Positions 17,855 to 39,915 of a DNA stretch of 64,000 nt are shown piece by piece. Position numbers and translations under genes: made by a program. A model generated the notes under the pieces. The model was given only the letters and a program-made list of their open reading frames with translations, did no database searches and was not told the DNA's origin. This stretch comes from Hemileia vastatrix (Eukaryota > Basidiomycota > Pucciniomycetes > Pucciniales > Zaghouaniaceae). The stretch is taken from positions 26,902,501-26,966,500 of the forward strand of contig JASXTE010000015.1 of NCBI GenBank assembly GCA_030280995.1, in the 5' to 3' direction. The first letter of the stretch is position 1. The number at the start of each line of letters is the position of its first letter.

Positions 17855-17856
17855 AT

Positions 17857-17874
17857 TGGTGTCCCAACAGTGGC
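17857..17874 (+). promoter_or_regulatory. E3 primer-binding site
   Basis: TGGTGTCCCAACAGTGGC begins two bases after the LTR, in the standard position. The complementary tRNA 3' end would be GCCACTGTTGGGACACCA; I do not assign the tRNA. It differs from the E2 and E4 sites. Confidence 0.6.
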
Positions 17875-18100
17875 ATAATTGTAACTAGTGTTTTTGATTA
17901 GATTGTTTGGTTTTTTAGGGTTTTGTCAAGAGGACGTAATCAAGCCGGCGCTTCAGCAGAAGAGTCGTAGGGTCTACAACAAGTGGATAAATAGCCATTA
18001 TCAGAGGATAGCGTAGGGCTGTATCGTGAAAACAGTCAGGTTTAATTACCAAGCGTGTGTTTTTTCTTTGTGATCTTTGTTTTGATTTGATATTTCAGGA

Positions 18101-20652: not shown

Positions 20653-20662
20653 TCCTCCCTCC
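20653..20662 (-). promoter_or_regulatory. E2 polypurine tract
   Basis: On the minus strand TTGGAGGGAGGA lies directly before the LTR start TGTGG. The same tract precedes the LTRs of E0 (1471-1482) and E4 (44076 onward). It would prime plus-strand DNA synthesis. Confidence 0.75.
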
Positions 20663-21786
20663 AATTGAGAACGTCCCCATTCTTGTAACTTTGCATAAGT
20701 GGTTGAGCAATTCCAAAAGAATTATCTTTTCCAATAAAGTAATTTGATAAATTTGTTTTAGCTGGTCTTCTTTTAATTCTTGATAATAAAAACGTTGTTT
20801 CTTCTTCTCTGGCTTCATATAACATAAAATAAAATAATATAAATCTTGTGATGATTCCGCTACTGAGAGCAAGGTTTGAATCCCTTCAGACTCCCATATA
20901 CCAGTCTTCCTTCTTGTCACAGCATTGAGAGAGTGGATCTTCCTATGAGCCGAATACTCCTGATTCCAACCTCATAGGGCCCCCCACTGAGCCGAATTCT
21001 ATGATTCCAATCTCGCCATAAGGTCCTCCAAGCTTCACACCAAAAATGGCCTAACACTGAGGCACTAAAAAAAATCATTCCCTAAAATCCAACTACCATC
21101 CTAACTTCTGATTCCTTCATCACAATTTTCAAACTTTGCCATACAGCGAACCCATAAAATACTTTTGCCAGGCTTCCAATAATAATTTTAACTTTAGACC
21201 ATGTTAAAGCGCCACAAATTTCACCTAATTACCCATTATGCTTTCCTTAGCATCATCACCACCTAAAATTTTAACCTCCTAAAGCTTATCAGCACCCAAT
21301 TCCAGAAATAATTGAATAACCAGTTTAGAGTCTTAGTGGACAGTGATAAATTAAAAGACAAATCCAGGATTCAACTAGAAACAGGGAAAATTTTGGAAAC
21401 GAACATTATGGGGTAATTGTGTATAGAGCAGCCAGCCCATCAATTACCCCCACACTTGCCAATATTAAATTAAGAAGGTTCCCCTGTGAACACTTCTTCC
21501 AATAAATTTTAAAAATTTTCCAACACTATCTTCACCCATATTTTAAGAATTTTAAGTTTTCGAAAATTTCAAAGAAGGTCTTCTTGCATTTCGTTAAGTT
21601 TCATCAGAGTTTCGTTGACCATGTACAGTGTAACAATAGTAAAGTATTTTTGATAAAAATAAGAAGATAGTTTATACTCGTTGCGGAGGAATCCATAAAA
21701 TTTCGTTGATATCATAGTTTATCCTTGTTGCGGAGGTATAAATTTAATAAAAGTCATTAAAATTGTAGTTTATCCTCATTTCGGAG
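20663..21786 (-). other. E2 3' non-coding tail
   Basis: It contains two diverged copies of the 103-bp E0 unit (about 20941-21045), the covarying stem GGGGTAATTG/CAATTACCCC (21410-21450), an AAACTGG hairpin (about 21325), and three copies of the GTTTAT(A/C)CTC...CGGAGG hairpin repeat (about 21680, 21716, 21766). Short minus-strand frames ending in NWREDVV run across the polypurine tract; I do not count them as genes. No antisense gene is visible here, unlike E1 and E3. Confidence 0.65.
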
Positions 21787-23346
21787 TTAGACTTCGGCAC
21801 TCCTGGTGCCTCTAGGATAGAACCGTTTCACTTGATCGGCTGCTACCCTCTTCTTTAATACTACTCCATCCAACTCTTCTAGCACATATGAACTGCCGGA
21901 AACTTGCTCCTTGATTTTATACGGTCCATTCCACCTATCTGCAAACATCTTTCCCCATTGACTTTCCAAACTCCTATTATACACCAGGACCATATCTCCT
22001 GGGTTCAAAGGTTTCCTTAATCGATGTGCCAACCGCTCATCCCAATATCTGACTGATTGATTTCGGATCTTCATCATCCGCAAATATGCCTTTTCTAAAT
22101 ATTCTTCTTTCTTTTCTAGCTGCATCATTCTTGCACACAATAATTCTTCAGTAGTTTTGACCGTGTCCCAGTCAACTCCAAGATATGATTCAGCTTCTAA
22201 ATCAACCGGTAAAACTGCTTTCTGTCCAAAAACAAGTTCATAAGGTGAAAATCCAGTCGTCCTTTTGGCAGTGATTCGATCAGCAAATAAAACTAAAGGT
22301 AAATAGTGCCTCCACTTTTCGGCACTTGTCCCACACATTTTAACTAAAGCATCCTTAATAACCTGATGCCCTCTTTCAACCATGCCTTCAGCTTTGGGAT
22401 AATATGGGGTTGCTACCCTAACCTTTGATCCAACTTTCACTATGGCCTCTTTAAACTCTATCCCAAATTCAGGACCTCCATCTACCGTTACCAACTTCAT
22501 CACCCCATACCTATATATCCAATTATTCAAAAAAAATTCTGCCACATTTTTGGCAGTTAAATTAATAAGAGGCGCTTCCTCTACCCAACCAGATAAATCA
22601 TCTCTGGCCACAATTAAATATTTATACCGTCCCTCTTTTATATGAACGGCATCTAAACTAACTCTCCCAAAGAGCGTATATTCACCTGTCGCGCGTCCAG
22701 GTTCTTTTGGCCTTAAATAACTTCGTCTTTGACATTCTTCGCATGACTGAACCCACTGTTTAACAAACATCTTCATGCCAGGCCACCAAAATCGATCAGA
22801 AATTCTTCTAAACGTTTCTCCAACGCCTCTATGCCCAAGGTCTTCATGCAGTGATTTCAAAACTAATTCTTGCCCCTTCTCTTGAGTTATAACTACTTGA
22901 GGATTTGGATACCTTCTCCTCATTAAACCTCGACCAGATAGGTAAAACGTAGATGACTTCCTCTTGATAGCCACCCATTCATCGTCTTCACAATCTTCTG
23001 GCCTCTCTAAAGTCAACAAATATTTGACTAACAAAAAATAAAAACCAGTCTGACCCCAGACTTCATCTTGAAAATCGATTAATATAACATCAATAGGGAC
23101 TTCTCTATCAACAATATCACCTGCACATGGATGAGCCAATAATCGTTGACCCCTAAATAAATTTTTAATCGAGCTATGTTGACGTTTTTCTTCTGAACCT
23201 TTGGATCCTTCGTAAACCGTATTTGAAAATACCTCTTTCTCTTTATCCACCCTTTTATTTAAATTCTCTAATTCTCCAACATATACACCATTCCTTAATT
23301 TACCACTATCCCACACTACCAATCCATCTTCCTCTACATACACCAC
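21787..23346 (-). pseudogene. E2 integrase, intact domain in a broken pol
   Basis: 519 open codons. Zinc-binding part: GHRGVGE, RFWWPGMK and CEECQRRS, with the H-H-C-C set complete. Catalytic triad visible: Asp in SLDAVHIKEG, Asp in TVDGGPEFG and Glu in MVERGHQVIK. The C-terminal part reads YWDERLAHRLRKPLNPGDMV, WGKMFADRWNGPYKI and VKRFYPRG. It is separated from RNase H by a TAG at 23359-23361 but remains in the same frame, so the domain itself looks undamaged while the polyprotein is not. There is no chromodomain. Confidence 0.85.
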
Positions 23347-23358
23347 ATCTTCTTCTAA

Positions 23359-24324
23359 CTACTCTCTGCTGAATTTATCTACACCTTTTCCAACACCTTT
23401 ATTAACATAAAAACTATTTTCCAGTTTATCCTCTTGGTGGAGGTCATCATCACCATAATCTAAACACAATAGTCCTGCCAGTTTAACCTCATGGGGGAGG
23501 TATGGAAAGTCTTCAGCTCCTTTAGTGCTGGCTTTAATAATAGGTATATCTTCATCAAACTCTTCTGAGTCTGAATCTTCTTCAGTGGGTGGTCTCCTTG
23601 ATAAACCATCTGGCATAGTAAAAGTTTTGCCAGGCTTATGAACTAAATCAAATGAAAAATGTTGAATAAAAGCTACCCATCTCGTCATGGGTGCGTTCGG
23701 TAAACTTGGGGAATTAATCATCTGGATTAACGATTTCGCATCCACTTGCAACTCAAAATGTTGCCCCCACAAAATATGCTGAAGTTTCTTCAGTATTTTC
23801 GCCACACCACATAATTCCAATTTTGTTTGAGAATATCTTGATTCGACCTCAGTAAATAGTACAGATTCATACCTTACTGGCCTGATGTAACCAGCTTTAT
23901 CCATCTGAGACAAAACCGCCCCAGCTTCCACCTGACTTGAATCGACTGCTAAATAAATTCTGCCAGCTTCTTTTCCATAATCCAACTTGTGCAGGACTAA
24001 ATCCTTCCCCACAACCTCCTTCAACTTCACAAATGCCTTCTCACACTCTTCATCCCACTCCCAGTCTGCATCCTTTCTCGTTAACCGTCTCAATGGAGTT
24101 GCCAATGAAGAAAAGTCCTTGATAAACATTCTAACATATACGCAAACGCCTAAAAACCCTCTGACTTCGGTCGTATTCTTGGGTCTTGGCCAGGACTGAA
24201 TTTTGTTAACTTTCTTCTTGGACATAATCCTACCCTCTCTACATACCACATGGCCTAATATTTCTAAGGCTGGCACACAACATGAAAATTTTGAACCTGA
24301 AATAGTTAAACCAGCCTCTTCAAT
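23359..24324 (-). pseudogene. E2 RT C-terminal part, RNase H and tether
   Basis: It begins after the TGA at 24325 (R in LFRIEE became stop) with ISGSKFSCCVPALEILGHVV, the RT thumb. RNase H follows: LAVDSSQVEAGAVLSQ (catalytic Asp region), ESRYSQTKLELCGVAKIL, and DAKSLIQMI. Then come DGLSRRPPT and an acidic tether with two hairpin-repeat copies (PHEVKLAGL and HQEDKLEN) before the TAG. Confidence 0.85.
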
Positions 24325-25214
24325 TCAAAACAAGATTCTTTCTAAAGTAATTGCAAACTCCCAAATGAATTTGCGTATCCCGGGATTCTCTTTCAACACT
24401 TGGTTATCATAGTCGGTTGTTGGTCCCTTAATTCCTCCATCATCTATATAGATTCCAGCATATTGTGGAATTTCATCTTGAAGGATCCAAGCCATCTGAG
24501 CTTGATAAACTGCAACCAAATTTGTTGCTCCTTGAGGTAATCTTGTTAACTGTAAACGTCCAAGTGGTGTATCGAATGTAGTGAGAGGCCTTGAGTCCGG
24601 ATGTAACTCTCTCTCATCATATCCTCCCATAATATCTCCCAAACCATAACACACTCTCCCTGCAAACGCTTCAACAAACTCCTCAGCACTAGGCGGTATC
24701 CCAGCATCCTTTATTGTAACCCTATTTAATTCCCTAAGATCATGAACAACTCTAAGCTTGCCATTCGGTTTCTTGATACAAAATACCGGACTAGAATAAC
24801 TTGATGTTGATTGCTAATACAGTCCAGTGCGTATCCGTTCTCTGAAAACTTTGATATAAGCTTCTTTCAATGCAGCCGGAATAGGAATCGGTTTCTGCTG
24901 CCACGGTTCATGACATACCACAGGAATCTTGTAAGGCTCCCCATAGGAATGCTTCAACACACCCCTCTCCTCTTCTACAAAAGCAATGGCCTTCTCTCGC
25001 TTGACCATCACATCCAACAACAACTTCTTCTCTTCTCCAGACAACCAACCATCAGGTCCAAAATTAAAAACACCCAGTCTCTCAAAAGTGATTCTTGACA
25101 TCTCAGAAATTCAGGCGGATTCTTTACCAAGGGACTTTCATAAGGATCTCTTGATAACCTTGGTCTTCTCAAAGGTGGATTTAATTCAGCAGGTAGCGGT
25201 TCATTAATAGGTCA
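24325..25214 (-). pseudogene. E2 reverse transcriptase core
   Basis: Motifs: FGPDGWLSGEEKKLLLD, NGKLRVVHDLRELNRVT, the catalytic IYIDDGGIKGP, and NPGIRKFIWEFAITLERILF. Breaks: a TGA at 25212-25214 where E1 reads Arg (IRPVNEP), a one-base loss at about 25108-25115 after NPPEF, a TAG at about 24814 where E1 and E3 have GLYEQS, and the TGA at 24325. RT catalytic Asp residues are intact. Confidence 0.85.
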
Positions 25215-26069
25215 AACTTTATTTGCTACTTTCTTATATTTGGCTGCGTCCACATATAAATTAACTTGAGGTAAAACAATTTCTTTTTTATTGCCATTAA
25301 AACTTTCATCAAATGAATCTTCTTCATCGCCAGAATCAGAATAAGAAAAATTAGAAAAATATTTTATTTCATTTTTAAATTTTACCCTTTTCTCCTTTCC
25401 CTCGTCTAATTTATAAACAGATTTTCCAACACCTTTGCTTCCCTTATCCAACAGTAAATCGCCAGTAAAGAAAGTTAGCAGTTTAACCTCTTGCTGGAGG
25501 ACCGGAATTGAATTTTCACAAAAATTATTTTTTTGAGTTTTAATTATACTGAGATTTTTAATCGGATTTAGATAAGATTTTTGCAGTTTACCCTCTTGCT
25601 GGAGGTCCAAAATAGAAGGAGATACTTGCAGTTTAGCCTCTCGCTGGAGGTCCATAATAGCATTTTCACATAAATTATTTTTTTGTGTTTTAATTATACC
25701 AAGATTTTTAATCGGGTTTTGATAAGATTTTTGCAGTTTACCCTCTTGCTGGAGGTCCATAATAGAAGGAGATAATTGCAGTTTAACCTCTTGCTGGAGG
25801 TCCGGAAACATACCCTTCCAATTTTTATCCAACCTAATTTGGCCCATTTTGCCTTTTTCACCATTTTTAAATTTAATAGAAAAACTGGGTAAATTCAATA
25901 AACATATAGAAAGGTCCAAAACGTATTTGCACTCCAAAGTAATATTAACAGAAAATAATTGAGAATCCACTTGAATTATCTCCAAGTGAGCTGACCTATT
26001 GCAATCCAGGATCTCATCCTGAGGAGAGATTACAACATTAGAGTGATCAGCCCCTGCTACCCCAAAAAA
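25212..26069 (-). pseudogene. E2 protease-RT linker in the -1 frame
   Basis: It continues FFGVAGADHSNVVISPQDE in the -1 frame after the heptamer. The middle is built from repeated LQQE(V/G)KLQ units, each encoded by the CAGTTTA(A/C)CCTCTTGCTGGAGG hairpin repeat (about 25480, 25584, 25630, 25735, 25780). Two blocks of about 150 bp around 25550-25610 and 25690-25770 are near-copies. No catalytic motif; probably a spacer. Confidence 0.65.
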
Positions 26070-26719
26070 TGAGGGCATCCATCCTTTTCCAACAAACATA
26101 ATTCACCAGAAGCCGTCCGTTTTATATGCCGCTTCTTGGTGCAAACACAACACTGGCACAGAGTAGTAATCCCTGGCCGTGTTTCCCAACCTTCATCTCC
26201 AGGAGGCGCTAACCGCATATGTAACCTCCGCATATCTTCACCAGTGATTTCCAAACTAATCCCCATGCCAGCTTGATACCCTATCCTGGCCTCAAAATCC
26301 ATCAAAAAAGGACCACCAAGAACAGTTTTGACTGCTCCTCTGGCCACATAAAAGTGAACCTTACCAACAGATCCACCAATGCCTAACCTGACATGCTCAG
26401 CTGTACCCATCAGCTCGGTTGCATGCCCTCCAATGCCTCTGAGGTTTCCCCCAGTTCCACTTTTAATTGGAAAGCCTATACTCGTCGCTTGCTCCAATGA
26501 AATTAAATTAATTTGAGACCCTGAATCGACCAAGGCCTTTACTTCTTTACCATTAAGAGTTACCACCAGGTAACCCAGGGGAGCGGAAAAATGTGTATCT
26601 ACATCTTCCGCAAACTTTTCAGCATTTTCACAAATATATTCCACCTCTCCAGTTGAAAACCGACACCTCGTCAAATGCTTCTTTTGCTTTTCAGCAAGCG
26701 CCGGACTAATTGTAAATAA
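26057..26719 (-). pseudogene. E2 retropepsin
   Basis: Active site ALVDSGSQINLIS, then GGHATELMG, VLGGPFLMDF and GISLEITGEDMRRLHM. It is in the same frame as Gag and separated from it only by a TAG at 26720 (E1 reads GELYAISP there). It would process the polyprotein. It ends CPHFLG at the frameshift site. Confidence 0.85.
26063..26069 (-). promoter_or_regulatory. Slippery heptamer TTTTTTG for -1 frameshifting, E2
   Basis: Protease codons CAT TTT TTG GGG TAG place T-TTT-TTG in the right register, one codon before the stop. The -1 frame is open into the linker. The matching site in E1 is TTTTTTA. Confidence 0.65.
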
Positions 26720-28668
26720 CTACCCTAAAGATAAGGGAATCTGCAGTTGATTCACCCTATTCAAAACTTCGTCCATCGCATTAGCTTGACCAGAAACTAC
26801 TGGCTGCTCATACTGTACCTTTGATTTAAAAACCTTGGCCCTGGGTACCTCTTGAGGTCCAACCGAGCCATCTTCACCCCCCATTATAACATCTTCACTT
26901 TCTATAACCCTAACTCCGTCACCAGCTTCTTGCACTAATCCTGATCCATCGCTAGTCCTTCTTACACACTCCATTGGGATGGGACCGCTAAAACTTGGTC
27001 TGGGTAGAGACGCCAACGGTACGTCCTCCTCAGAATCGAAATCATCCTCTGGCATAGGCTCACCATTTAAATCAAACTTGCCATAACTAGGGGGCCCCAT
27101 ATCAGCAATCCCCTTCTGCATTTTATATAATTCATCCTTAGAGTAAGGGTTCAATTTTTTGGCTGCAGTTTTAGCACTAGAATTCTTGTCCTTAGAGTAA
27201 GGGTTCACTTTGTTATTGGCCTTGCCAGGATTAGCCCTCAATTGGCTCTGAATGCTACTCTTCGCCTTAGTAGCAGCTGCTCTTCTAGCAGCATTAACAT
27301 CGTATTCGCCAGCCATACAGCTACCCTCCACCTGGGCAACCGTCGCCAGCTCTAAACCACCAAAAGAAGTAGAAAATGTGGCTTTACTGACCTCTTTCTC
27401 CTTTCCCTTGTCAGCTTTACCACCATTACCATTACCATTTTTGCCACTCTTGGCATTAACATCTTCATCCATCACCTCTTCAAATCTGGCTCTCCTTTCA
27501 GCCTTTAAACTTCTTCTGACCAAATCAGAAGGAGACTGTCCATCACTGGGCTTGATGAACGAACCATCAGGAAATTTATAAACTTTACCATCAAATAAAA
27601 CTCGCCCAGCATCCATATCCTTATCAAGAGCAAAAAAAACTGTTGCTCTATGCCCCCTTCTATTGCAATAGGAGCACACCTTTGGCTCGTCATAGCCACC
27701 TCTATATCCATTACTACCACCATTCCCACCATTTCTCCCCTTGCCTGGGAAGCGGTTACCGTTGTTATTTCCATTATAATTTTGACGTTCATAACCTCTG
27801 GACTGATAAGAAGTAGACGTCAACGAAGAAGCAATTGGGGCCTTGTTGGCCTTCTGGGTTTCTTGAACAAATATTTTTAATTGTTTAGTTAAATCGGCCA
27901 GGTGATCGACCATCTTATTATCTACGTTGCCCTCAACTTTAGCAGCAGGTAATCCCATTTGAGCCTTCTTGGCCTCCTGGGCTTTTCCATAATATCGTTA
28001 TTTTCGGCCAAAACTTTGCTAACCTTGCTAACATATTGAGTGCATGACTCTTGATATTTGTCCAACACCAATAACTTTAAATGGACTTGAATGTTGTCCT
28101 TGATAACCTCCAGAGACGGCAGTTTCTGCTCACCATTAGGCAGTTCCTTCATCAAATCTTTTCTTGAAAGATCCTTCAAGACGTCCATTCGAATATCCCT
28201 GCTGCATGCTGTCCAAAACAAATCTTTTGCTTGATTCTCATGCACTAACTCGTCCACCAGTATGAGATATTCCAACACTTCATCAAACTGAACACACAGC
28301 TTTTTGAAGTCTGCCATAGAAGAAACACCACCATTTGCTTGCCAGTCTCCAACAATTTTATTGAGGTCCATCATTGTAAACCTAACACCCCATCTATCAA
28401 CCATAGCTTTAGAAAGCTTAACCCAATCCTTGTCCTTAAATGCCTGCATAGCAATAACCTCTTTTTCCACCTCCCTATCAGCAATAAAAAACCTAACTTG
28501 CTTCACCATATCCACATGAGAAGCACCATCAACAGCAGCAGCAGCTTCATACCTGCTAATGAACCATTTAACCTCCTCCCCATCAAAATTTGGGCCATCC
28601 CAAGAAACAATTCTAACTGAGGGAGTAAGAGGGTTAGAAGATCCAGAAGCAGCAGCAGAAGAAGACAT
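26720..28668 (-). pseudogene. E2 gag
   Basis: It starts at ATG 28668 (MSSSAAASGSSNP), 176 bp from the LTR. It contains VRIVSWDGPNFDGEEVKWF, YEAAAAVDGASHVDMVKQV, KDLSRKDLMKELPNGEQ and a Gly-, Asn- and Arg-rich stretch (YNGNNNGNRFPGKGRNGG). The zinc knuckle reads CSYCNRRGHRATVF, with Phe in place of the last Cys, as in E1. One base is missing at about 27975 (EKA-QEAKKAQ), which shifts the frame; the two pieces otherwise join. Confidence 0.88.
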
Positions 28669-28824
28669 CCCAATAAGTAATGAAAAGCGTTAACAATCAA
28701 TAAAATAACAAGCCTCTTTCATGCCAATAACAAAAATCCAATTAGAGTTCCATAAAATAAGCCTCTTGCAGGCTAAGAACGTTCTTGATCCAACTAAGTC
28801 TTTAAAGAAAGCTAGAGAAATCGA

Positions 28825-28842
28825 ACCCCATGTTGGGCGCCA
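28825..28842 (-). promoter_or_regulatory. E2 primer-binding site, tRNA-Lys-like
   Basis: On the minus strand TGGCGCCCAACATGGGGT starts two bases after the LTR. It is close to the tRNA-Lys(1,2) complement TGGCGCCCAACGTGGGGC known from spumaviruses. Confidence 0.65.
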
Positions 28843-28844
28843 AC

Positions 28845-30001
28845 TATGGTAAGGTAAACTCTTACAGTCGCCTTGCTGTAAGCAGAATCCGGAGGAGATA
28901 TGTGGATTTAGCTGAAAACCCTGTCCTTCCAATAAAAATAACAAAATGGGAATTCTAAATCACTAAGCTAACCAATCTACTTGAATCTGATTGATAAAAA
29001 TAATGAAACTCTATAATAATTAATGCTTATTGAGATTTAAAGAAAGTGGCTGTTGATAAAGAAATACTGATAACAACAATTAAGGTGTACCAGTGAAAGA
29101 TCTGAAAAGATTGACTTTTATGTTTTTATAATAATTTGAATTTTTATGAGACAGCAATAATCAAGTCCCAGCGATGAAGACCTTTCTAAAGATACCCTGT
29201 ATGAAGTGTGTTTTAAATTGTTGAGTGGTATTTCTAAAATGTTATATATAAAATATAAAGTTATAAGGGTATTACAAATTTATTTAATTTGTTGAGTAAT
29301 AAAAAATGAGACTGTGGTAGTTAATGATTAAGCTGTATGATCTGTCCCCCTCCTCTATTTCGAGTTTGAGAAGCGCTTAAGTATTCCTAGTCACGTGCCT
29401 AAGTTTTCCCCTCCAGAGCTCTTCCAGAGTCAATCCGGAGCCCGTACGGAGTCCGTATTGAGTCTGTACGGAGTCAAAGCGGAGTCCGTACGGAGTCGAA
29501 ACGGAGTCCGTAAGGAGTCCGTCCGGACTTCCGGACTCAATTAGAACCTTAAAACTATAATATAAAATCTAGAAAAATTACACATAATAGAGCTACTTCC
29601 CCTTTACATAACAAACTAATTTTCGTAGTCTGCGCAGCTCTAATTACCCCGTGAAAATTCATCAAAGTTAAGTTATTTTTGAAAACGTAAATATTTCTAT
29701 AAAACTTTAAAATTCATTTAAAAATATATGAAAAATAGTAAAAATTCTGGGAAAATTTCCCAAGGTTCTTGAGTGACTCAACTTGATACTTATAAGTTTT
29801 TCAGACCGTAAAAATAAGTTTTCTCCGTAAAATAAATTGTTTTCGTGTAGGCATTCGCTCGTGACCAATTTCTTCATATTTGAAACTCAAATAAATTAAA
29901 TAAAACCCTTTTATATATAAAAAAATAATAATGCCAATCTTGCACACCGTAATAACTCCATTTACGTACTTAGGTGCCATACTAAACTTTAGGCTACCAC
30001 A
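28845..30001 (-). mobile_element. E2 5' LTR
   Basis: 1157 bp, touching the primer-binding site at its left edge. Hairpin at 28861-28882, minisatellite at 29435-29540. Confidence 0.92.
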
Positions 30002-30005
30002 GCGT
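30002..30005. repeat. Right target-site duplication of E2 (GCGT)
   Basis: It matches 19503-19506 exactly. Confidence 0.85.
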
Positions 30006-30906
30006 GGATCACCAGGAAGTAGAACAGACGTCAATGTTGGAGGAGCCAGAGGTAGTACAGCAAAGAGCGGTACCTGCTGAAGGAATTCCAGGAGCAAAGA
30101 ATAATACTCCAAAGAACCCACCTGGAAGAGCGAAAGCTGGTGCCAAGGCAATTCAGCCTAAATGGAGAATGCAGGGCCCGGTTCATTCTGATTTTCCTAA
30201 AGCTGCCGAGGATTTAGATGCGGAATGTTTGAAGACTACAGTCTCTGTTCCATTGGGGATTCTGACAGCAGTAGTGCCAGATGTAGCAAATGGAATAGTG
30301 GATAAGTGCAGAAAGCAAAGGATTACTAATTGCGCTGGGTTCGATATGGAAGAACAGTCATTTCATCCAGTCGTTGGATTACCTAGGGCGCCACATTATG
30401 CAGGACTAGGGTATTTAAATATTACGGTAAATGGTAAGCAAATTAAAGCGTTAGTGGATACGGGTTCACAAATCAATGTGGTATCAGTGGATGACACAGT
30501 GGAATTAGGTCTTCCTGTAAAAGACGGCGAAGGCACTGTCGCAGGAATTGGGGGAGGTAGGTTACCTGTTATAGGTGTAGCAGAGTATGTACGCACTAGA
30601 GTTGCAGGAGCAACAAGAGATATACATTTTTATGTTCCAATGGGTGTAGTTAAACCAGTTTTAGGCATGCTATTTTTAATGGATTATTCAACGACTATAG
30701 ATTATTGTTTAAAAAAGACTATTGGAATAAGGATTATGGGTGAAGATGGTGTTCCAGTAACAGCAGTCTTAGTAGCGCCCAAGGATGGTGGCTGGGAAAC
30801 TAAGTACTCTGGAGCTGCGCGGTTAGAGAAAGAAAGAGAGTTTTATGAGGAAGTCTCAGATGAGGAGATAGGGCAACCGCCAGGAAGGCACCAACATTTT
30901 CATTAG
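30006..30906 (+). pseudogene. E3 retropepsin, C-terminal part of gag-protease
   Basis: It continues the gag frame of 18101-19506 after removal of E2. The active site reads ALVDTGSQINVVS, followed by GIGGGRLPVIG and VLGMLFLMDY (E2 has VLGGPFLMDF, so Gly-Pro became Met-Leu). It ends HQHFH at TAG 30904-30906. The -1 frame is open from CATTTTCAT onward and aligns with the linkers of E1 and E2 (VTISQDE against VISPQDE), so a frameshift site is likely, though the heptamer is not canonical here. Confidence 0.85.
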
Positions 30907-33329
30907 GGACTGGCATTTTAGGTGTTACTATCTCCCAGGATGAGAGGAACCGGGATAGTGACCAGTCAGTCCAACAAGGAGGGATACATAAAGCGGTACT
31001 TCATTGATGTCTTTGGAATACTACTGTAGAATGTATTATACCTAAACTTTTTGATTTCTTTAATTTTGGATATTTTTATACTTATATTAAAAAGAAAAGA
31101 CAAAAACAGGATTTAGGTGCAACCTGTAGTTATATTAGAAAGGGTTTGATTTTAATTAATGAAGGAAGTAGCAAGGACTTTTTTTTATTGAAGTATAAAC
31201 CAGTAGCTGTTAAGGTTAAACCAGTGAATATAGCAATGCCTGATTTGAATCCCCCTTTGCACAGGCCGGCGCTATCTAGAAATCCTTATGATACGCCTTT
31301 AACAAAGTTTCCGCCTGATTTTGCATCTATCAGTAAGATTACAATGGAAAGGCCTCAGATGGTAGATTTTGGACCGGAGGGCTGGTTATTGCAGGAAGAA
31401 ATGAAGTTATTATTACATGTTATGGTTCTTAGGGAAAAGGCTATTGCCTTTTCAGAAAAGGAAAGAGGTTTGTTAAAACACTCTTATGGTAAACCTTATA
31501 TTGTTCCAGTTATACCTCATGCACTGTGGCAAAAGAAGGCTTTTCCAATACCAGCGGCTATAAGAGAAGAGTATACGGAATTAATTAGGGGAAGGTTAAA
31601 GTCCGGCTTGTATGAACAGTCTATGTCTAGTTATTCAAGTCCAGTGTTTTGTGTGGTCAAAAATAATGGTAAATTGAGGGTTGTTCATGATCTTAGGGAG
31701 ATGAACAAGGTTACAGTAAAGGATGCAGGGATACCACCAACGCCAGAAGAATTTGTGGATTCCTTTGCGGGATTTGCATGTTACGGATTAGATGATATTA
31801 TGGGAGGATACGATGAGCGCGAGTTGGAAGAATCGTCCAGACCCATGACGACGTTTGAAACACCACTGGGGCACTTTAGGTTGACAAGGTTACCGCAAGG
31901 CGCAACAAATTCTGTGGCGGTATATCAAGCACAAATGATGTGGATATTGCAGGATAAAATTCCAGAACATGTGGGAATTTTCATTGATGATGGCGGTATA
32001 AAAGGACCAGCCAGTGATTATGAAGGGGAAGTGTTAAAAGAAAATCCGTATATTAGAAAGTTTATTTGGGAATATGTGATTACCCTGAAAAGAGTGCTAT
32101 TTAGGATAGAGGAGGCAGGATTAACAATTTCTGGGTCTAAATTTGCCTGTTGTGTTCCAGCGCTAGATATAGTGGGACATGTGGTATGCAAGGAAGGGAG
32201 AATCATTGCTGAAAAACAGAGGAATAAGGTACTTACATGGCCAAGACCAAGAAATATTAAGGAAGTTAGATGGTTTTTAGGCATTTTTACATATGTAAGA
32301 ATGTTTATTCAAGATTTCGCTTTGTTGTCTTCATCTTTACGGCGCTTAACAAGAAAGGATGCTGTATGGGATTGGACGGAGGAATGTGAGGAGTCATTCG
32401 AGTTATTAAAGAGGGTTGTAGGGAAAGATATTCTTTTGAAGAAATTGGAGTATGGACCAGGCGCTGGAAAAATTACTCTAGCGGTGGATTCTAGTGTGTC
32501 CGCTGTGGGCGCAGTTTTGATGCAGGAGGACGAGGAAGGTAATGATACACCTGTCCTTTACAACTCCACGACTTTTACAAAAGTGGAGTCTAGGTACTCC
32601 CAGTCTAAGCTGGAGTTATGTGGAGTAGCAAAAATTCTTAAAAAGCTACAATGGATGCTTTGGGGGCAGCGTTTCGAGCTGCAGGTTGATGCGCTGTCGT
32701 TGGTTCAAATGATTAATAGCCCAAGTTTACCAGATGCGCCTATGACAAGGTGGGTAGTGCAGATTAATATATTTTCTTTTGATTTAGTCCATAAGACGGG
32801 GAAATCTTTCACTATGCCAGATGCGCTGTGGAGAAGACTGTTATGTGAAGAAGACTTGGAAGCGGAAGAATTTGAAGAAGATAAGAGATGTGTAAACGGG
32901 ATAGATTATTGTTATACAAAATTTTATAAGGACATCCGCAATGACGATAAACTATCAGGCAAGAACGTCCGCAATGAGGATAAACTATCAGGCAAGAACG
33001 TCCACGATGACAATAAACTAGCAGGTAGGATTGTCCATGATGACAATAAACTAGTAACATGGAATGTCCGAAAAGACATAAAACTAAATGCTGACAACGC
33101 AAAGGATGTTTGTAGGAAGTTTGAGCTGCAACTGGATTTAGGGAACACTGAAGCTAATATAGTGACAAGGAGTGCACAAGGCAAGGTAGTGGAGGAGTCA
33201 GATGATGTAGATGCTTCAAAGGGAGGTCAGGACAGTAGTACTCAACTTGAAGAGGAGGAGTATTTAGTAGACAACGCATCTACAGATGAGGCAGTAGAGT
33301 TTTTAATGTTATATTTGGAAGGTAATAGT
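30897..33329 (+). pseudogene. E3 reverse transcriptase and RNase H
   Basis: The -1 frame runs from the gag-protease end to 33329 with one TGA near 31002. RT: NGKLRVVHDLREMNKVT, GLDDIMGGYDERE, catalytic IFIDDGGIKGP, NPYIRKFIWEY. RNase H: LAVDSSVSAVGAVLMQ, ESRYSQSKLELCGVAKILKK, DALSLVQMI. The tether (32925-33095) is built of about five 11-residue repeats of the type RNEDKLSGKNV, encoded by the dispersed hairpin repeat. A clear ATG is lacking, as expected for translation by frameshift from gag-protease. Confidence 0.88.
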
Positions 33330-34577
33330 TGACCGGATTTTTGCAATAAAAAGGTTTGGCACAATATTAAGAAGCGTGCTAAAGGCTATTTTATTAAAAA
33401 TGGGAAATTATGGAAGAATCAAGCTTTTTCTCCTCAGTTAGTTATTCAAACTAAGGAAGGGAAGGAGAAGATACTCAGGGAGTTAAACGAGAATTTAGGA
33501 CATAGAGGTCAAGAGGAGACTCATTGCAGAGTTAGGGAAAGATTTTGGTGGCCCAACATGAAAAATGAATTAAGGGATTGGGTTAAATCTTATCCTGAAT
33601 GCCAGCGCAGAAGTTACAGAAAGCCAAAAGAAAAAGGAAGAGCAATGTGCAAAGATACTGTTTTTGGTAGGGTTAGTTTAGATGCAGTCCATACAAAAGA
33701 AGGACACTTTAAATACTTGGTAGTAGCCAGGTATAATCTATCAGGATGGGTTTAAGCAGCGCCGTTGATAAACCTTAAGGCAAGTAATGTGGCCAAGTTT
33801 TTGAAGAAAGAATGGATTTATAGGTATGGGGTAATGAAGATGGTAACCATAGATGGTGGCGCTGAATTTGCGGGAGAATTCCAAGAAGTAGTAAAAGGTA
33901 TTGGTGCAAAGTTACGAGTTGCAACACCATATTATCCTGAAGCAGAGGGAATGGTAAAAAGAGGGAATCAAGTTATAAAGGATGCGCTGGTTAAATTATG
34001 TGGAAATAATGGGTTGAAGTGGAAGAACTACTTGCCATTAGTTTTGTTTGCGGACATGATTTCAGTTAAAAGGACAACAGGTTTTTCACCGTTCGAACTT
34101 ATGTTTGGTCAAAGGGCGATATTACCTATTGATCTGGAGGCTGGATCTTTCCTAGGATATGATTGGGATCAAGTGCAATCAACCAAAGACTTAATTCTAG
34201 CAAGGGTAGCGCAACTTGAAAGAAAAGACGAGTTTGTGGAGAAAGCGTATGAAAGAATGATGCAGATCCGGTACAAGTCAGTTAAATATTGGGATGAGCG
34301 CTTAGCGCATAGGTTAAGAAAGCCATTGAACCCAGGAGATTTGGTTTTGGTTTATAATAGAAGTTTAGAAAGCCAATGGGGGAAGATGTTTTCTGACAGA
34401 TGGAATGGTCCTTATAGGATAAGAAAGAAGATAGCTGGAGGGTCTTACTTACTGGAGGAATTGGATGGTACTGAGTGGAAGTGGCGTGTGGCCGCAGATC
34501 AGATCAAAAGATTCTACCCAAGGGGTGTTCCAGTGATACAGGATAACCTCCGGAATGAGGAGAAACTACCAGAATAA
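33330..34577 (+). pseudogene. E3 integrase with a lost catalytic Glu
   Basis: Same frame as RT but entered through a TGA (33330-33332) and broken by a TAA at 33753-33755 where E1 and E2 read GWVE. Zinc-binding part: GHRGQEETH, FWWPNMK and SYPECQRRS, with the first Cys of the C-x2-C pair replaced by Tyr. The triad keeps Asp in DAVHTKEG and Asp in TIDGGAEF, but MVKRGNQVIK has Lys where E2 has Glu. The stops, Tyr and Lys changes make it inactive. It ends VKRFYPRG-like, then NLRNEEKLPE, which is again a hairpin repeat. Confidence 0.85.
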
Positions 34578-35181
34578 TACCTCCGGGAAGAGGTTAAACT
34601 AACAAGTTATGTTAAATTTTGTTTTTCTAAAAGGACTCACAGGAGGCTTCGACACGGTTGTGACGGATAGAGGGCGCTAACTGGAAGTTAGGCGGACTAT
34701 GGCTGAACAGGCAACTGGCATAAGGGCTCAGATGAGGGAATAGAAGAAAATGAAATCATATATCTTCATCTTTCGAGGAGATATGATGAAATAGGTAATT
34801 GGATTGAAGGAGATGTGTACCATGTAAACGCAAAAGACACTGGGAATTTAACTAATGGGTTAACTAACCAGGAGTGGAATAGTGATTCATAGATGGGGCG
34901 CTCTATAGTTCAATTCTTATTCTAAATGGTATAACACTGTATGGCAGTAAAGGCGGTAAAGTTTTATGATATAAAGTTTATTTGGGATTTTTTTTAGGGG
35001 TTTATAGTTTTTTAAAGAAAGTAGAGGGAGAAAAGTTAGGCGCTCTAAAAGTATGGAAGACAGGTGTAATAAAATAGTGCCATGTTTAAAAAGATTATTT
35101 GAAGGCATAGCATAAAAAATATATGAGGACTATGTACAGGGATAATGGAAAGAGGAGACTCATAAGGAAAGCACTAGTGGT
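34578..35181 (+). other. E3 tail between integrase and antisense genes
   Basis: It holds one more hairpin repeat (CCTCCGGGAAGAGGTTAAACT, about 34580) and otherwise no recognisable feature. It would contain the 3' ends of antisense transcripts from the gene at 35182-35981. Confidence 0.4.
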
Positions 35182-35981
35182 CTATTCAGTATCAGGGTGA
35201 AAGCTAATAGGATATCCTTTCCAGTCTTCAGGAATGATGCAGTGAAGTGGATTGGCAGGGAGTTCAAGAATAGTTGATGAGCTGATTTCGTTCATTAGTT
35301 GACCTATCATTTCTATATGAGTATAGCGAGCTTCAAGTTCAGCATCAGAAAAAGCTGGTGCGTTATTGTAGGATAGGGACATAGCGTCATATATAAGACA
35401 AAGTCTGGAAAACATTGGAATGGAATGGACAAAGGGTAAAGGAATGGGAACCCATCCCAAGGAGATGGATTCATTGAAGCCTGACAGGAAGTTAGTAAGC
35501 AAGAAGAGCATAAGTATAGTAAAGGATACTTACTTGCTAATAAGTTTTGTGGGTGCGCTGACGGTGAAGTAACTGTAACCGCGTCAGGAGCAGCTGCAGT
35601 GGAGCCTGAGCGCATGGAAGCACTGGAACTTGGAGGGGAAGAAAGTGTAGCGCTAGGCTGTATGGATATTTTGGGCCTGGGAAAACTAGGAAGCAATGGC
35701 AACTCACAAGGAACATAATTATTATTAGTGGAAATAGTGGGACTAGTGGTGGTAATTATGGGAGCGCTACTAGTAGAGCTAGGTGGAAAGCGATTATAAC
35801 CAGTAGGCTGAGAAGTATTCTGGTTAAGGGAGGTATCACAAGTTTTGTGGTATCTATAGTAATTGTCACAGGCAGGTCTAAAAGAGGCATACCCCCGAGG
35901 TCTAGAAAATGTACAATGAAAGTTACGGCGTTTGCAAAATGAGCAAGCTTGATCTCTGGGAACTGTGCGATATTGAGTCAT
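35182..35981 (-). CDS. Antisense gene in E3 encoding a Zn2Cys6-like protein with one Cys lost
   Basis: Complement of 35534-35981 joined to 35182-35480, giving 248 residues. The 53-nt intron has donor GTAAGT, a CTAAC branch-like site and acceptor CAG; splicing completes an AGC codon and joins two open frames. Residues 13-48 read CSFCKRRNFHC, 14 residues, then CDNYYRYHKTC: C-x2-C-x6-C-x14-C-x2-Y-x6-C, a binuclear zinc-cluster pattern with Tyr for one Cys (a G-to-A change would do this). A Ser-, Pro- and Thr-rich middle (about 50-145) precedes an acidic, partly helical end (AFSDAELEARYTHIEMIGQL). A TATA-like box lies about 40 bp upstream of the ATG. It is probably a DNA-binding regulator or a relict of one; the function is unknown. 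Confidence 0.7.
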
Positions 35982-36018
35982 GATGTTAGGATAGAGGAAA
36001 TTCAGGTTATTAGAAGGG

Positions 36019-36027
36019 CTATTTATA
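36019..36027 (-). promoter_or_regulatory. TATA-like box of the 35182-35981 antisense gene
   Basis: On the minus strand CCTATAAATAGCC lies about 40 bp before the ATG at 35981. It is independent of the LTR promoter. Confidence 0.5.
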
Positions 36028-36485
36028 GGTTAAAAATAGCATTATAAAGAAGTCATCAGTTGCACCATGTCTGACTTGAGCGCTGGATGGTTTCTAAGAA
36101 GCTAGTGAGAAACGTTTGTTATAATGAAGAACCCAAAGAAAGATGAATTGTTACAATCAAGGGAAAGACATGTAATACGAAGATTTAAAGATTAAAAGAG
36201 AGTGCATACATAAATGATGCAGGGGAAGTAATTGCTGCTATAGAGTGTAGCAAAGATCTCAAGTTTTTATTTATTATTATTTGTTGTTTCATCTTTCATA
36301 GGCACTTAGTAGAAGGGTGCGCTGCTTAGAAAAAGGATGATATTTTGGGGGCAACTCATCTTGCAGTTGTAGAGCTCTCACAGGAAAGTTAAGTGAAAAT
36401 AAAAAAAATAAATAAATATATTACATTTTTTTACAAGGCTATATACACATTACAAGGAATAAATACAAAAGAAGATATTTTTTTT
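36028..36485. other. Spacer between the two antisense genes of E3
   Basis: No coding frame, repeats or hairpins recognised. It should hold the 3' end of the 36486-37509 transcript and the upstream region of the other gene. Confidence 0.4.
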
Positions 36486-37509
36486 TTAGTATTCTGCTTC
36501 ATCAACGATTGGGATGCAGAAAGCCCAATTGTTAACAGCCTCTTGCATGTTTTGTTGCAAGGCAGTTATCAGTTGTTTTCGCTTATTATACTCAGCGCAA
36601 GTATAAACCGGAACCTCCTCGAGGAATTCTTTGACGGCTGCTATCATGTTATTCATACAACGCATGGTTGCATCGTAAGGAGTGCAGGCAATTTGTTCTG
36701 CGAATTCCCAGTTTTGAGCCATGGCGGGCTCTTCATCATCAATGACCGGAAAGTTTTTGGTTGGACATTCGTCCAGAGTGATGGCATCAAAGACCGGCTG
36801 CATATCAGTCCAGTCAGGAGTTGGAGAACAAGGAGTGGGTTCAGGTGTAGGTACGGTATCCCAGAAGGGATCTTCTTCCAAGGCAGGAAGGAATAACGGA
36901 GCAATAGGAGGCAGAGGCGTTTCAGCGTAAGGAGTGCCTGGCGCATTCTACATAATATTAAAAAAAAAAAAAAGAAGAAGAAGTAAGAAAAAGAGACTTA
37001 CTGTACTTTCCTCCAAGAAAAGAGATTTAGGGATTGAGGAGGCGCTACTAGGAGTAGTTTTGTGGTAACCAAACTTGGCTCGTTTGTTACCAGGAGGAGT
37101 AACAGGAGCTGGCGCCGGGCGCTTGATGGTCATTTGACTCATCATGTTGGTGGTGGAAGCGTTGGGGTCCAGGCGGGCATCAGTGGGCGGCCCATCATAA
37201 CTACATTTCTTCTTGTGTTTCTTGCAGTAATTGCACGACTGGAATAAAGGAAAAATTAAAGATTAGTAACAAATGGGAAGAAAAATGAAGAAAACTTACA
37301 GTGAAAAAATTATTGCCACGGCGGGCTTTTGAAAAATGACAAGGAGTTATGCCATTTTCAATGCAATGGGTGCATCTTGTCCCACCCATCAGTGTGGTTA
37401 TGGGCATTGTTGGAGAAGCAGTAGGGGGCTGAGTGCGCACGAACTGTAAAATAGCGTCCATGACGTTGACGGTATTTTCAGCGTTAGGAGGGGTTCTTCT
37501 AGTATTCAT
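36486..37509 (-). CDS. Antisense gene in E3 encoding a Zn2Cys6-like protein, intact
   Basis: Complement of 37300-37509, 37002-37238 and 36486-36947, giving 302 residues with no stop. Introns of 61 and 54 nt have GTAAGT donors and CAG or TAG acceptors, and both joins are in phase 0. Residues 46-82 read CTHCIENGITPC, 14 residues, then CNYCKKHKKKC: C-x2-C-x7-C-x14-C-x2-C-x6-C, close to the fungal Gal4-type cluster but with a longer middle spacer. The first intron falls just before the fourth Cys. A basic region (IKRPAPAPVTPPGNKRAK) follows. The C-terminal half is acidic, then helical (MNNMIAAVKEFLEEV, KQLITALQQNMQEAV). It lies 147 bp inside the 3' LTR and reads away from it. Role unknown; transcription control of element or host is an inference. 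Confidence 0.75.
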
Positions 37510-37613
37510 TGAGAAAGATAAAAATAAGAAAAAGAAAAGAAAAGAAGATGATGATTTGTAGAGAATAAGAGAAAAAGATAGAAGATGGAGGAAGAAAACT
37601 CTGCGAGACGCAG

Positions 37614-37623: not shown

Positions 37624-37647
37624 GGCTCCTGGGGACAGTCGCGAGTA

Positions 37648-37656
37648 GAGGGAGGA
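37648..37656 (+). promoter_or_regulatory. E3 polypurine tract
   Basis: GAGGGAGGA lies directly before the LTR start TGTGGTACGC. Confidence 0.75.
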
Positions 37657-38975
37657 TGTGGTACGCGCCTCGCAGGAAGCGTGAATTTAGACCAGTCAGC
37701 GCGCATAGTCCAGGAAGAATAAAGGGGAGTTAGCGCAGCAGGAAGTATAAAAATATAATATGTATTTGTGTGTTTCAAGGAACAAAGGAAATAGAAGCAC
37801 AGAAAAGGATTAAGGGTCTGTGCGCTTGGACTTTGCAGCAAGATGTTCCAAACAATAGGGGAATTGTGTTTTATGGATTTACGACCGCAAGCGCTAAACA
37901 ATATGGATTTGGATTTTCCAATAATTGTGTGTTACACATTAAAGAAGGAGTTATGGCTTAAGGACAACTCAAGTGCATAGTATACTGTACCACGGCAAGT
38001 GATATAACTTACTGAGATAAGTAATGAAGAAGGCTAACGAGTTAAGCGAGCTGTCGGAACTATGAACTTAGTATTAAAAGCAAAGAGAGTGGGGACTCAA
38101 TCCTAATACTACCCAAGAGTTAAGGCAACTAGACGCAGCATTAGGATAAGTCAAACCTGGAACTAGTGCTGAAACAAAACAAGGTATAGTTAAAAGCGCA
38201 TATGTGGAGCATTAGTGAATTAAGTTAATACTAGTGTTAGTAATTATAGGGTATGATTTAGGCACTGTAGCTTCTACAAGCGGTGTACGTAGTTTACTAA
38301 TAGATTAGTTGTTGTTTTCCTAATGTGGCGCTAGAGTCAGCAACGGAGATCCATTGGGGAGCTATGTCTTAAGCGCTAGAAAATATAAAAGGAGGACTGG
38401 TTGATCTATCTACTCAGAAAAAAAATAATAATAAAATAAGAAAAATGGTATTAGTTGTCGTTTTAAAACGCAGATCATACAAAAATCAATATAGAGATAT
38501 ACGAGTAGCTTTAGTCATAGTACCCAGTATAAGATATTAGATCTTTTGTGATTAATTGTTTGAGAGAATATTAAAAGGTATTTCTGAGTCTTTTAGAGTT
38601 CGTGCGTCTGTGTGTGTATTTCATATAGTATAGTGAAAGAGCGCAACATAGAGAGAATATATAGATTCAGTGGGATTAACTATTATTAGAGATATTTTAT
38701 TACTATAATAAAGCATATTCATAGAGAGCGCTTCAAGAGGGAGTAGCTGTGAATAATAGCGCTTATTAAGAATAGAAATATCCAGATAGTAATACTTGTT
38801 TTTTTCCTTATCTTTAACTCATCTCAACTTATAAACTTTCTAGTCAATTATTAGCATTGCACATTATTACACTGTCTTTAAAATAAGAGTGGCAGGCGCT
38901 TCTTTTAGAAATTAAAAAGAAGAACCAACCCATCTCGCATTGTGTCTACTGCTTAGTACTTTTGAAAAGTCTACA
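37657..38975 (+). mobile_element. E3 3' LTR
   Basis: 1319 bp, starting TGTGGTACGCGCC and ending AAAGTCTACA. Near-identical to 16535-17854, including the TATAAAAG box (about 38384). Confidence 0.92.
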
Positions 38976-39915
38976 AAGTCACTACCAGAAAAAAATGGGC
39001 AAACTCATAATATTGTGAAAAATCATGTTTTTTATTTTTTATTTAAAAATATATAAATTGATATATAAATTGAACTAAAACCCCTTTTTCATGCTTTTAC
39101 AAAATTTTTCAATAATGAATTTAAGAATGAATCTCCCAATACTATAAAAAGTTATTCAAGAAAAAAAAATATTAAACTGATACTTTTTGTCAGCCAGGCT
39201 ACTAGACTTACCCAGTAAAATAATTAATTATTTACTGGATGAAGCCACACCTTATTATTTTAATTATTTAATTAAATAAGTTACATTAAAATAACCTGTA
39301 ATAAATTAACTAATTACAGAATGGTAACATTAAATGAATAATTAAAATTAAATATAAAATTTCCCTTATATTTTTATTCTCTAACACCATGCTCATTGAC
39401 AGGTTAGAAGAAATAAAATTTTATATTAAAAAATAGATTTTTAAATTAAAATAAAATTTTAATATTCAAATAAAAATAAATATATACAAAAAATTCAAAT
39501 TTCTTATTTAGAATTGACTTCTACAGTAAATATTAAATAAATTTATGTATTTCTGACATACTCTGTAAATACATCTTTAAAATACAGCTTTTTGACACCT
39601 TCTTTTTAGAACAACTTTGTTATTTGAAATACTCCATCTGCAATATTCTTTTTCTCTCTCTCTCATACTACTGTTTTTAGAATTTCATTGCCATGGTTTG
39701 TCCCTCCTTTGCCTATATAAGGCCTCTCTCTTGGTTGTTTTTTTATTCATTCAATTACTTACTTATTTTACTACAACTACTTAAAATCCTTATATTACTA
39801 TTTATTATTGCCTTAGTATTTACATTAAACGTAATTCTAATCCATTAATTTTTTTAATAATCCAACTCTTTAGCTTTATTATTGAGTAAATAATCTTTAA
39901 GATAGGAAAATACGT
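38976..39915. other. AT-rich region starting with a CACTA-like end
   Basis: No gene. At 38981 the sequence reads CACTACCAGAAAAAAATGGG, like a CACTA transposon terminus. A near-perfect palindrome centred on AATAATTAATTATT lies at about 39213-39240. A TATA-like CCTATATAAGGC is present at about 39709. No convincing opposite terminus was found. Confidence 0.35.

What the first reader, a model, noticed from the sequence alone, without database searches (positions are those of the whole stretch)
35182..37509. A gypsy retrotransposon carries two spliced, TATA-equipped zinc-cluster genes on its antisense strand
Seen: between integrase and 3' LTR of E3, two minus-strand genes can be assembled from open frames using three GT-AG introns (53, 61 and 54 nt). 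All joins are in frame. Both start near an N-terminal six-cysteine pattern with a 14-residue middle spacer and have a TATA-like box upstream. Known: Zn2Cys6 clusters are fungal DNA-binding domains, and LTR elements normally lose introns during their RNA stage. Inference: antisense placement lets intron-bearing genes ride along, and these proteins may control transcription of the element or its host. Antisense genes exist in some retroviruses (HBZ) and plant elements, but I know of no such zinc-cluster pair in fungal gypsy elements.
Basis: partly seen in the sequence, partly recalled or inferred. Interest (0 to 1): 0.93.

Follow-up and report, generated by a model that had tools for sequence, protein, structure and literature searches.

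The report
Retrotransposon carrying two antisense DNA-binding genes
A jumping element with many copies in a large, probably rust-fungus genome carries, on its back strand, two intron-containing genes for zinc-cluster-like proteins that natural selection has preserved, and the element is studded with one short DNA word that these proteins might recognise.

Summary
E3 is a Ty3/gypsy element (LTRs 16535-17855 and 37657-38976, 98.2% identical) split by a nested gypsy. Between integrase and 3' LTR, on the minus strand, lie gene A (302 aa, introns 61 and 54 nt) and gene B (248 aa, intron 53 nt). Of 20 other copies' 3' regions fetched from the same genome, 16 carry both genes with the same splice positions. 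Against divergent copies, dN/dS in the spliced frames is 0.19-0.31 (A) and 0.32-0.45 (B), versus 0.75-1.5 in shifted frames, so the proteins have been under selection, more clearly A than B. This copy's B has lost its fifth cysteine. Zinc-cluster (Zn_clus) similarity passes Pfam's cut-off in 4 of 6 copy fragments, not in the window's own proteins. A further finding: GCGC is the most over-represented of 256 tetranucleotides in E3 (56 seen, 13.7 expected) and rare outside it. I propose that A and B bind the element's own DNA, perhaps at GCGC, to regulate or de-silence it; binding, transcription and splicing are untested. Antisense accessory genes are known (Boty brtn, Retand, Grande); my paper searches showed no zinc-cluster pair.

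The parts
16535..17855 (+). 5' LTR of E3
   Evidence: 98.2% identical (1297 of 1321) to 37657-38976
17856..17873 (+). primer-binding-site-like stretch after the 5' LTR
   Evidence: sequence beside the LTR end; function inferred
18086..19507 (+). gag of E3, 5' of the nested insertion
   Evidence: open frame of 477 aa to 19519; weak zf-C2H2_10 match, E 4.2e-4, below Pfam's cut-off
19507..30001 (-). nested gypsy element that splits E3; not part of E3; no A/B relative detected in it
   Evidence: its LTRs 19507-20652 and 28845-30001 are 96% identical; tblastn and profile search
30002..30906 (+). protease region of E3
   Evidence: Asp_protease_2 E 4.6e-8, RVP E 1.1e-5
31008..33332 (+). reverse transcriptase and RNase H of E3
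   Evidence: RVT_1 1.6e-8, RT_RNaseH 4.9e-20; relatives
33333..34577 (+). integrase region of E3; in-frame stops at 33330-33332 and 33753-33755, so this copy's pol is broken
   Evidence: open frames; rve E 0.0085, below cut-off; aligned to the copies at 92-95%
35182..35981 (-). gene B: exons 35981-35534 and 35480-35182, intron 35533-35481 (53 nt); 248 aa, zinc-cluster-like
   Evidence: both genes in 16 of 20 other copies; dN/dS 0.45 and 0.32 in the spliced frame against L029 and L030
35838..35945 (-). cysteine domain of gene B; fifth Cys position is Tyr in this copy
   Evidence: Zn_clus above gathering score in 2 of 3 copy fragments of B
36020..36027 (-). TATA box of gene B
   Evidence: TATAAATA in 11 of 14 aligned rows, divergent L027b included
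36486..37509 (-). gene A: exons 37509-37300, 37238-37002, 36947-36486, introns 37299-37239 and 37001-36948; 302 aa, zinc-cluster-like
   Evidence: dN/dS 0.19, 0.31, 0.23 against L027b, L029, L030
37616..37623 (-). TATA-like box of gene A
   Evidence: CATAAATA in 12 of 14 aligned rows; TATAAAAA in divergent L027b
37647..37656 (+). polypurine tract
   Evidence: AGAGGGAGGA next to the 3' LTR; its complement is seen in the aligned copies
37657..38976 (+). 3' LTR of E3; densest part in GCGC
   Evidence: 12 GCGC in 1320 nt

Best explanation
E3 belongs to a Ty3/gypsy family with many copies in this genome, probably that of a rust fungus, and carries its own pair of spliced zinc-cluster-like genes between integrase and 3' LTR on the strand opposite gag-pol. 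Shown by sequence: both genes sit at the same place in 16 of 20 fetched copies, with nearly fixed exons, a drifting intron length and protein-level purifying selection, so they serve the element. Inferred: each gene is transcribed from its own TATA promoter; the introns survive retrotransposition because they are not introns on the sense RNA; A and B are nuclear proteins that fold a Zn2Cys6-like cluster and bind DNA. Inferred, weaker: their main target is the element itself, and the GCGC word scattered through LTR, gag, pol and tail is the binding site, so that they mark E3 DNA to control its transcription or lift host silencing, as VANC proteins do for VANDAL elements.
For: Both genes in 16 of 20 other copies. 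Of 17 gene-A/RT pairs within 40 kb (128 of the listed A hits typed against 58 RT hits), 16 have A downstream on the opposite strand, 11 of them 3.05-3.21 kb from the RT end. B intron 53 nt with GT..CAG in 17 of 17 aligned rows; A intron 2 varies from 52 to 97 nt in 16 rows while exon 2 is 237 nt in 16 of 17. dN/dS for A 0.19, 0.31 and 0.23 against L027b, L029 and L030, shifted frames 0.97-1.52; for B 0.45 and 0.32 against L029 and L030, shifted 0.75-1.11. Fixed differences between two subgroups in A: 5 nonsynonymous, 21 synonymous. Zn_clus above cut-off in 4 of 6 copy fragments. GCGC: 56 against 13.7 expected, z 11.9, first of 256 words; 36 against about 16 after synonymous permutation in six E3 frames (sums mine); 6.32/kb in E3-like against 0.54/kb in other parts of 20 loci.
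Against: No RNA or protein data: transcription, splicing and binding are unshown. Within the young family B's dN/dS is 0.77 and hardly lower than its shifted frames (0.78, 0.84); its single-copy and shared changes look alike, and its few fixed subgroup differences are 4 nonsynonymous to 1 synonymous. B exon 2 against L029 gives 0.81, with one shifted frame lower at 0.53. The model of B's cysteine domain has pLDDT 45. Nothing ties GCGC to A or B except co-occurrence; in divergent copies most GCGC sites sit at family positions, so their density may be inherited rather than regained. Zn2Cys6 proteins usually prefer CGG-type triplets (recalled). The most divergent B copy, L018b, has no GCGC in 880 nt, though it is CpG-depleted. 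One copy, L020, has lost most of both genes.
Confidence: 0.6

Rival explanations
1. A and B are self-limiting regulators, like HBZ of HTLV-1: antisense products that damp sense transcription from the 5' LTR and so limit damage to the host; GCGC is unrelated.
For: Same geography (antisense, next to the 3' LTR) as the antisense genes discussed in PMC7264820 and PMC11963269 (parts read); 147 nt lie between gene A's ATG and the LTR.
Against: Gives no reason for the element-wide GCGC excess; no expression data either way.
Confidence: 0.2
2. A and B act after transcription: as nuclear-import, packaging or integration-site factors that bind the cDNA or host chromatin.
For: Another antisense accessory protein is nuclear (Grande GENE23, reported in PMC7264820); the proteins carry a DNA-binding-type domain.
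Against: No chromatin-reader domain found in A or B at E up to 1; insertion-site bias was not tested.
Confidence: 0.15
3. The antisense RNA itself matters, as a silencing trigger or decoy, and the frames are incidental.
For: Antisense transposon RNAs are reported in a fungal phytopathogen (PMC10648671, search listing only).
Against: Protein-level selection in the spliced frames, nearly fixed exon lengths and drifting intron length.
Confidence: 0.03
4. Chance open frames, or host genes caught once in this copy.
For: None found.
Against: 0 of 400 shuffles; both genes in 16 of 20 other copies; 5046 first-look candidates for gene A in the genome, 130 scored, 329 exon matches.
Confidence: 0.01
5. 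The GCGC excess is a mutational or historical base-composition effect unrelated to the genes (not exclusive of the genes being real).
For: CpG loss is strong in this genome (o/e 0.08-0.12 in the most depleted parts), so word counts depend on age; in divergent copies most GCGC sites are at family positions; gag and protease alone exceed codon choice only slightly (6 against 4.2, 4 against 2.3).
Against: The nested gypsy, with CpG o/e 0.50, shows no excess (0.73/kb); over six E3 frames the excess exceeds codon choice.
Confidence: 0.35

Closest known systems
brtn, the antisense gene of Boty-like gypsy elements of Botrytis (Zhao et al. 2011, title only seen)
   Same: fungal LTR element with an additional antisense gene; listed among pol-3'LTR antisense ORFs in review PMC7264820 (parts 1-2 of 3 read)
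   Different: no zinc cluster mentioned in the passages read (PMC8365987, PMC4227169, PMC7264820); original paper not read, so its intron status is unknown to me; Boty gag-pol has a chromodomain (PMC4227169 passage), none was found in the E3 frames scanned
Retand TRP28 antisense ORFs and Grande GENE23 of plants
   [quoted passage not shown] PMC7264820)
   Different: plants; other domains; the word 'intron' does not occur in PMC11963269's main text
HBZ of HTLV-1
   Same: antisense gene read from the 3' end of a retroelement; regulatory (recalled)
   Different: bZIP-type protein of an animal retrovirus (recalled)
VANC anti-silencing proteins of VANDAL elements
   Same: protein encoded by the element plus a short word very dense in that element and rare in others (PMC5735166 passages)
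   Different: DNA transposon of Arabidopsis; nine-base oriented motifs, mainly non-coding and often in tandem repeats; here GCGC is palindromic, spread over coding and non-coding parts, and binding is untested
Fungal Zn2Cys6 transcription factors (Pfam PF00172; AlcR)
   Same: CxxC-x6/7-C-x14-CxxC-x6-C and half-domain matches; AlcR is the only PDB match up to E 10 for the B domain profile, at E 1.8
   Different: halves apparently in reversed order, though one fragment (B of L026) aligns weakly in canonical order; encoded by a retroelement

Membership tests
Ty3/gypsy LTR retrotransposon | paired LTRs, PPT, order PR-RT-RH-IN | tested here: met
   LTRs 98.2% identical; Pfam order of domains, integrase match weak
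Ty3/gypsy LTR retrotransposon | target-site duplication | tested here: not met
   flanks of the two LTRs do not match; does not outweigh the rest, may reflect recombination
[quoted passage not shown]
   16 of 20 other copies; dN/dS
[quoted passage not shown]
   TATA boxes only; no RNA data
Zn2Cys6 zinc cluster (PF00172) | six cysteines in two CxxC-x6-C halves | tested here: met
   pattern across copies, with one x7 in A; not met by the window's own copy of B (five Cys)
Zn2Cys6 zinc cluster (PF00172) | score at or above Pfam's gathering cut-off | tested here: inconclusive
   4 of 6 N-terminal fragments above; the two window proteins below
Zn2Cys6 zinc cluster (PF00172) | canonical order of halves and fold | tested here: inconclusive
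   half fragments suggest reversed order, all four matches below cut-off; L026 B aligns in canonical order at 13.2 bits; model too poor (pLDDT 45)
VANC-like anti-silencing system | word dense in own family, rare elsewhere | tested here: met
   GCGC 6.32/kb against 0.54/kb in 20 loci
VANC-like anti-silencing system | protein binds the word and removes methylation | not testable with these tools
   needs binding and methylation data

The most novel reading that the evidence does not exclude
E3 runs a sequence-specific self-recognition system: antisense zinc-cluster proteins, with the cluster halves in reversed order, bind a GCGC word that selection has spread through every part of the element, coding parts included, and thereby shield or reactivate E3 copies against CpG-methylation silencing. 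It would be a retrotransposon counterpart, in a fungus, of plant VANC/VANDAL.
Probability: 0.25. Interest if true: 0.92.

Novelty: new variant of a known kind. Interest (0 to 1): 0.8.

Why it matters
Antisense accessory genes of LTR elements are described as being of unknown function (PMC7264820, PMC11963269). Here is a pair with a recognisable DNA-binding-type domain, evidence of selection, conserved introns, and a candidate target word in the same element. That makes the question testable with a binding assay. If true, it would show a retrotransposon making its own sequence-specific regulators, and could help explain how such families swell large fungal genomes.

Tried and rejected
Protein searches with A and with B's unspliced frame found nothing at E up to 10, although proteins of Puccinia and Austropuccinia are in that database, so A and B look lineage-restricted at that sensitivity. 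Viral-contig scans gave no relative. Rfam at gathering thresholds: nothing. A/B relatives elsewhere in the window: none by tblastn or by profile. A-versus-B paralogy: full-length score reached by 1 of 2000 shuffles, cysteine regions alone by 29 of 2000, C-termini by 99 of 2000 (unspliced control 1633 of 2000); suggestive only, because the local alignment pairs A's second half with B's first; that script stopped with an error after printing these. Codon-usage scoring was uninformative: the coding frame is the best of its own strand in both genes, but one of three opposite-strand frames (A) and three of three (B) score higher. The first reverse-transcriptase dN/dS table was wrong because loci were unoriented; the corrected one gives 0.49. 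The structure model was too poor for a fold search, so none was run. Rows dropped: L024 and L018 from the pairwise counts; L024; L018, L024, L011 and L023; those four and L027's main copy, which leaves 12 family rows there. L027b is cut after B exon 1, so its exon 2 figures are not homologous and are not used.

Full report
What was checked. Translation confirms 302 aa over three exons for A and 248 aa over two exons for B, with introns of 61, 54 and 53 nt that begin GTAAGT and end CAG, TAG and CAG. In 400 dinucleotide shuffles of 34600-37656 the longest gene allowed by GTAAGT..YAG splicing was 190 aa; none reached 246.

The element. Its 5' LTR (16535-17855) matches its 3' LTR (37657-38976) at 98.2%, and a second gypsy element with its own LTRs (19507-20652, 28845-30001) is nested between gag and protease on the other strand. 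Protease, reverse transcriptase, RNase H and integrase follow in gypsy order; the integrase match is weak. This copy's pol has in-frame stops at 33330 and 33753; protease and RT lie in different frames, which may be normal for the element. A polypurine tract abuts the 3' LTR. No clean target-site duplication was seen.

Host. The genome holds 747.6 Mb in 791 contigs. Of 98 relatives of the reverse transcriptase, the closest are unnamed metagenome proteins (up to 72%); the named ones nearest to it are Puccinia striiformis (up to 69%), P. coronata (67%) and Austropuccinia psidii (53-59%), and one row at 65% is labelled a bacterial MAG.

Other copies. The RT search listed 59 matches; 58 of 52,918 first-look candidates were scored. 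Sixteen of the 20 carry both genes in recognisable form: L009, L011-L018, L021-L027; among these L024 lacks A's exon 2 and L018 has an insert in A. Of the other four, L010 is interrupted inside integrase by an element of the nested family, the E3 match in L028 ends before gene B, L019 ends in B's intron although a gene A match lies 11.5 kb on, and L020 has an internal deletion from 35555 to 37398. Gene A had 5046 first-look candidates in the genome, 130 scored, 329 exon matches, not all listed.

Splicing. In 17 aligned rows (the window and 16 copies) the B intron is always 53 nt with GT..CAG. A intron 1 has GT..AG in all but L012 (GC..AG) and the deleted L024. A intron 2 ranges from 52 to 97 nt in 16 rows while A exon 2 is 237 nt in 16 of 17; A exon 3 is less constant, 462 nt in 10 of 17. 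Branch-point-like TACTAAC/T sequences are kept in most rows. Fully intact reading frames by that count: A in 5 of 17 (window, L009, L015, L016, L017), B in 3 of 17 (window, L009, L015), both in 3 of 17.

Selection. Young copies mostly carry post-insertion noise: within the family (15 rows, 105 pairs) dN/dS is 0.41 for A against 0.65 and 1.17 in shifted frames, and 0.77 for B against 0.78 and 0.84, so B shows next to no contrast there. Reverse transcriptase gives 0.49 among eight copies. Single-copy changes in A are near neutral (110 nonsynonymous, 37 synonymous, 3 nonsense), shared ones less so (72 and 55; Fisher p 0.0013), and fixed differences between two subgroups are 5 nonsynonymous to 21 synonymous; B shows no such contrast (p 0.35; fixed 4 to 1). 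Divergent copies are clearer. For A, dN/dS against L027b is 0.19 (13 family rows), L029 0.31 and L030 0.23 (12 rows), and shifted frames give 0.97-1.52. For B, L029 gives 0.45 and L030 0.32, shifted 0.75-1.11. B exon 1 gives 0.31 against L027b and 0.35 against L018b (shifted 0.70 and 1.25); B exon 2 gives 0.12 against L018b (dS saturated) and 0.25 against L030, but 0.81 against L029, where a shifted frame gives 0.53. One opposite-strand frame also shows a low ratio (0.27 for A, 0.30 for B exon 2), as expected of a shadow frame, and it holds 11-16 stop codons on average. So the spliced frame of B exon 2 is favoured by two of three comparisons.

Proteins. The spacing seen in most copies is C-x2-C-x7-C-x14-C-x2-C-x6-C in A and C-x2-C-x6-C-x14-C-x2-C-x6-C in B. 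The window's B has Tyr at the fifth Cys; 15 of 15 other rows scored there have Cys. Pfam Zn_clus: window proteins below cut-off; of six N-terminal fragments from copies, four above and two below. Split into 30-residue halves, A's second half matches profile positions 1-18 (2 of 2) and B's first half 19-37 (2 of 2), all four below cut-off; the other four fragments gave no Zn_clus match. This suggests halves in reversed order, pieced together from two genes. The one PDB match, AlcR, not significant (E 1.8), aligns the same way: B's first half to AlcR's second and B's second to AlcR's first. Against it, B of L026 aligns weakly (13.2 bits) in canonical order. The AlphaFold model is poor (pLDDT 45).

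The GCGC word. Over E3's internal part and one LTR, GCGC occurs 56 times against 13.7 in dinucleotide shuffles, the highest z (11.9) of 256 words; density is 4.2/kb in the gag part, 4.6 in pol, 4.9 in the tail, 9.1 in the LTR. After permuting synonymous codons, observed against expected is 6/4.2 (gag), 4/2.3 (PR), 10/3.3 (RT), 6/1.9 (IN), 6/2.6 (A) and 4/1.7 (B), so gag and PR alone are unremarkable; in six frames of two gypsy elements without A/B the sum is 3 against 4.8 (sums mine). In the 20 loci, E3-like parts hold 650 in 102,821 nt and other parts 37 in 68,539 nt; the window outside E3 holds 17 in 52,054 nt. Divergent copies L027b, L029 and L030 keep 3.9-4.3/kb, but mostly at positions also seen in the family: only 3 of 10, 1 of 11 and 1 of 10 sites are at no family position, so this may be inheritance. 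L018b has none in 880 nt.

Reading. The genes belong to the element, are selected as spliced proteins (A firmly, B less so), and look like DNA binders. The most economical target is the element's own DNA. The GCGC excess gives that idea a candidate site, on co-occurrence alone. VANC/VANDAL is the functional parallel (PMC5735166, passages); this is not a claim of membership.

Literature. No listing showed a zinc-cluster antisense pair in a fungal element; several listings are capped and only open-licence papers are held. Seen: PMC7264820 parts 1-2 of 3; PMC11963269 abstract, discussion and passages; passages of PMC8365987, PMC4227169 and PMC5735166. Zhao et al. 2011 (brtn) was seen only as a title.

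Noticed in passing
window 16535-38976 and E3-like parts of L009-L030: GCGC is strongly over-represented throughout the E3 family, in coding and non-coding parts, and rare in the rest of the window (17 in 52 kb).
   Followed up: yes
window 1-5000, 5300-12171 and 50000-64000: CpG observed/expected is 0.08-0.12, against 0.47-0.67 in E3, the nested gypsy and the copia element: a sign of CpG methylation and decay in this genome.
   Followed up: partly
L020 (G000:C338:3018400-3027000), window-equivalent 35555-37398: An E3 copy with an internal deletion of most of genes A and B but with its 3' LTR; L019, L020 and L022 share a small gap at window-equivalent 34930-34989. Possible non-autonomous sublineage.
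   Followed up: partly
window 2846-4033, + strand: Three successive open frames in one reading frame (102, 147, 144 aa), on the strand opposite the neighbouring minus-strand gypsy at 5300-12325 and beyond its integrase; no Pfam match and no A/B similarity.
   Followed up: partly
window 44767-49934: A copia element with 96.8% identical LTRs that contain a repeated 163-nt stretch.
   Followed up: no
window 60326-61153, - strand: Integrase end with a chromodomain (PF00385, E 1.3e-6): a chromovirus-type gypsy, unlike E3.
   Followed up: no
gene A residues 237 and 293: Two cysteines outside the zinc cluster are present in 15 of 15 rows, hinting at a structured C-terminal domain.
   Followed up: no
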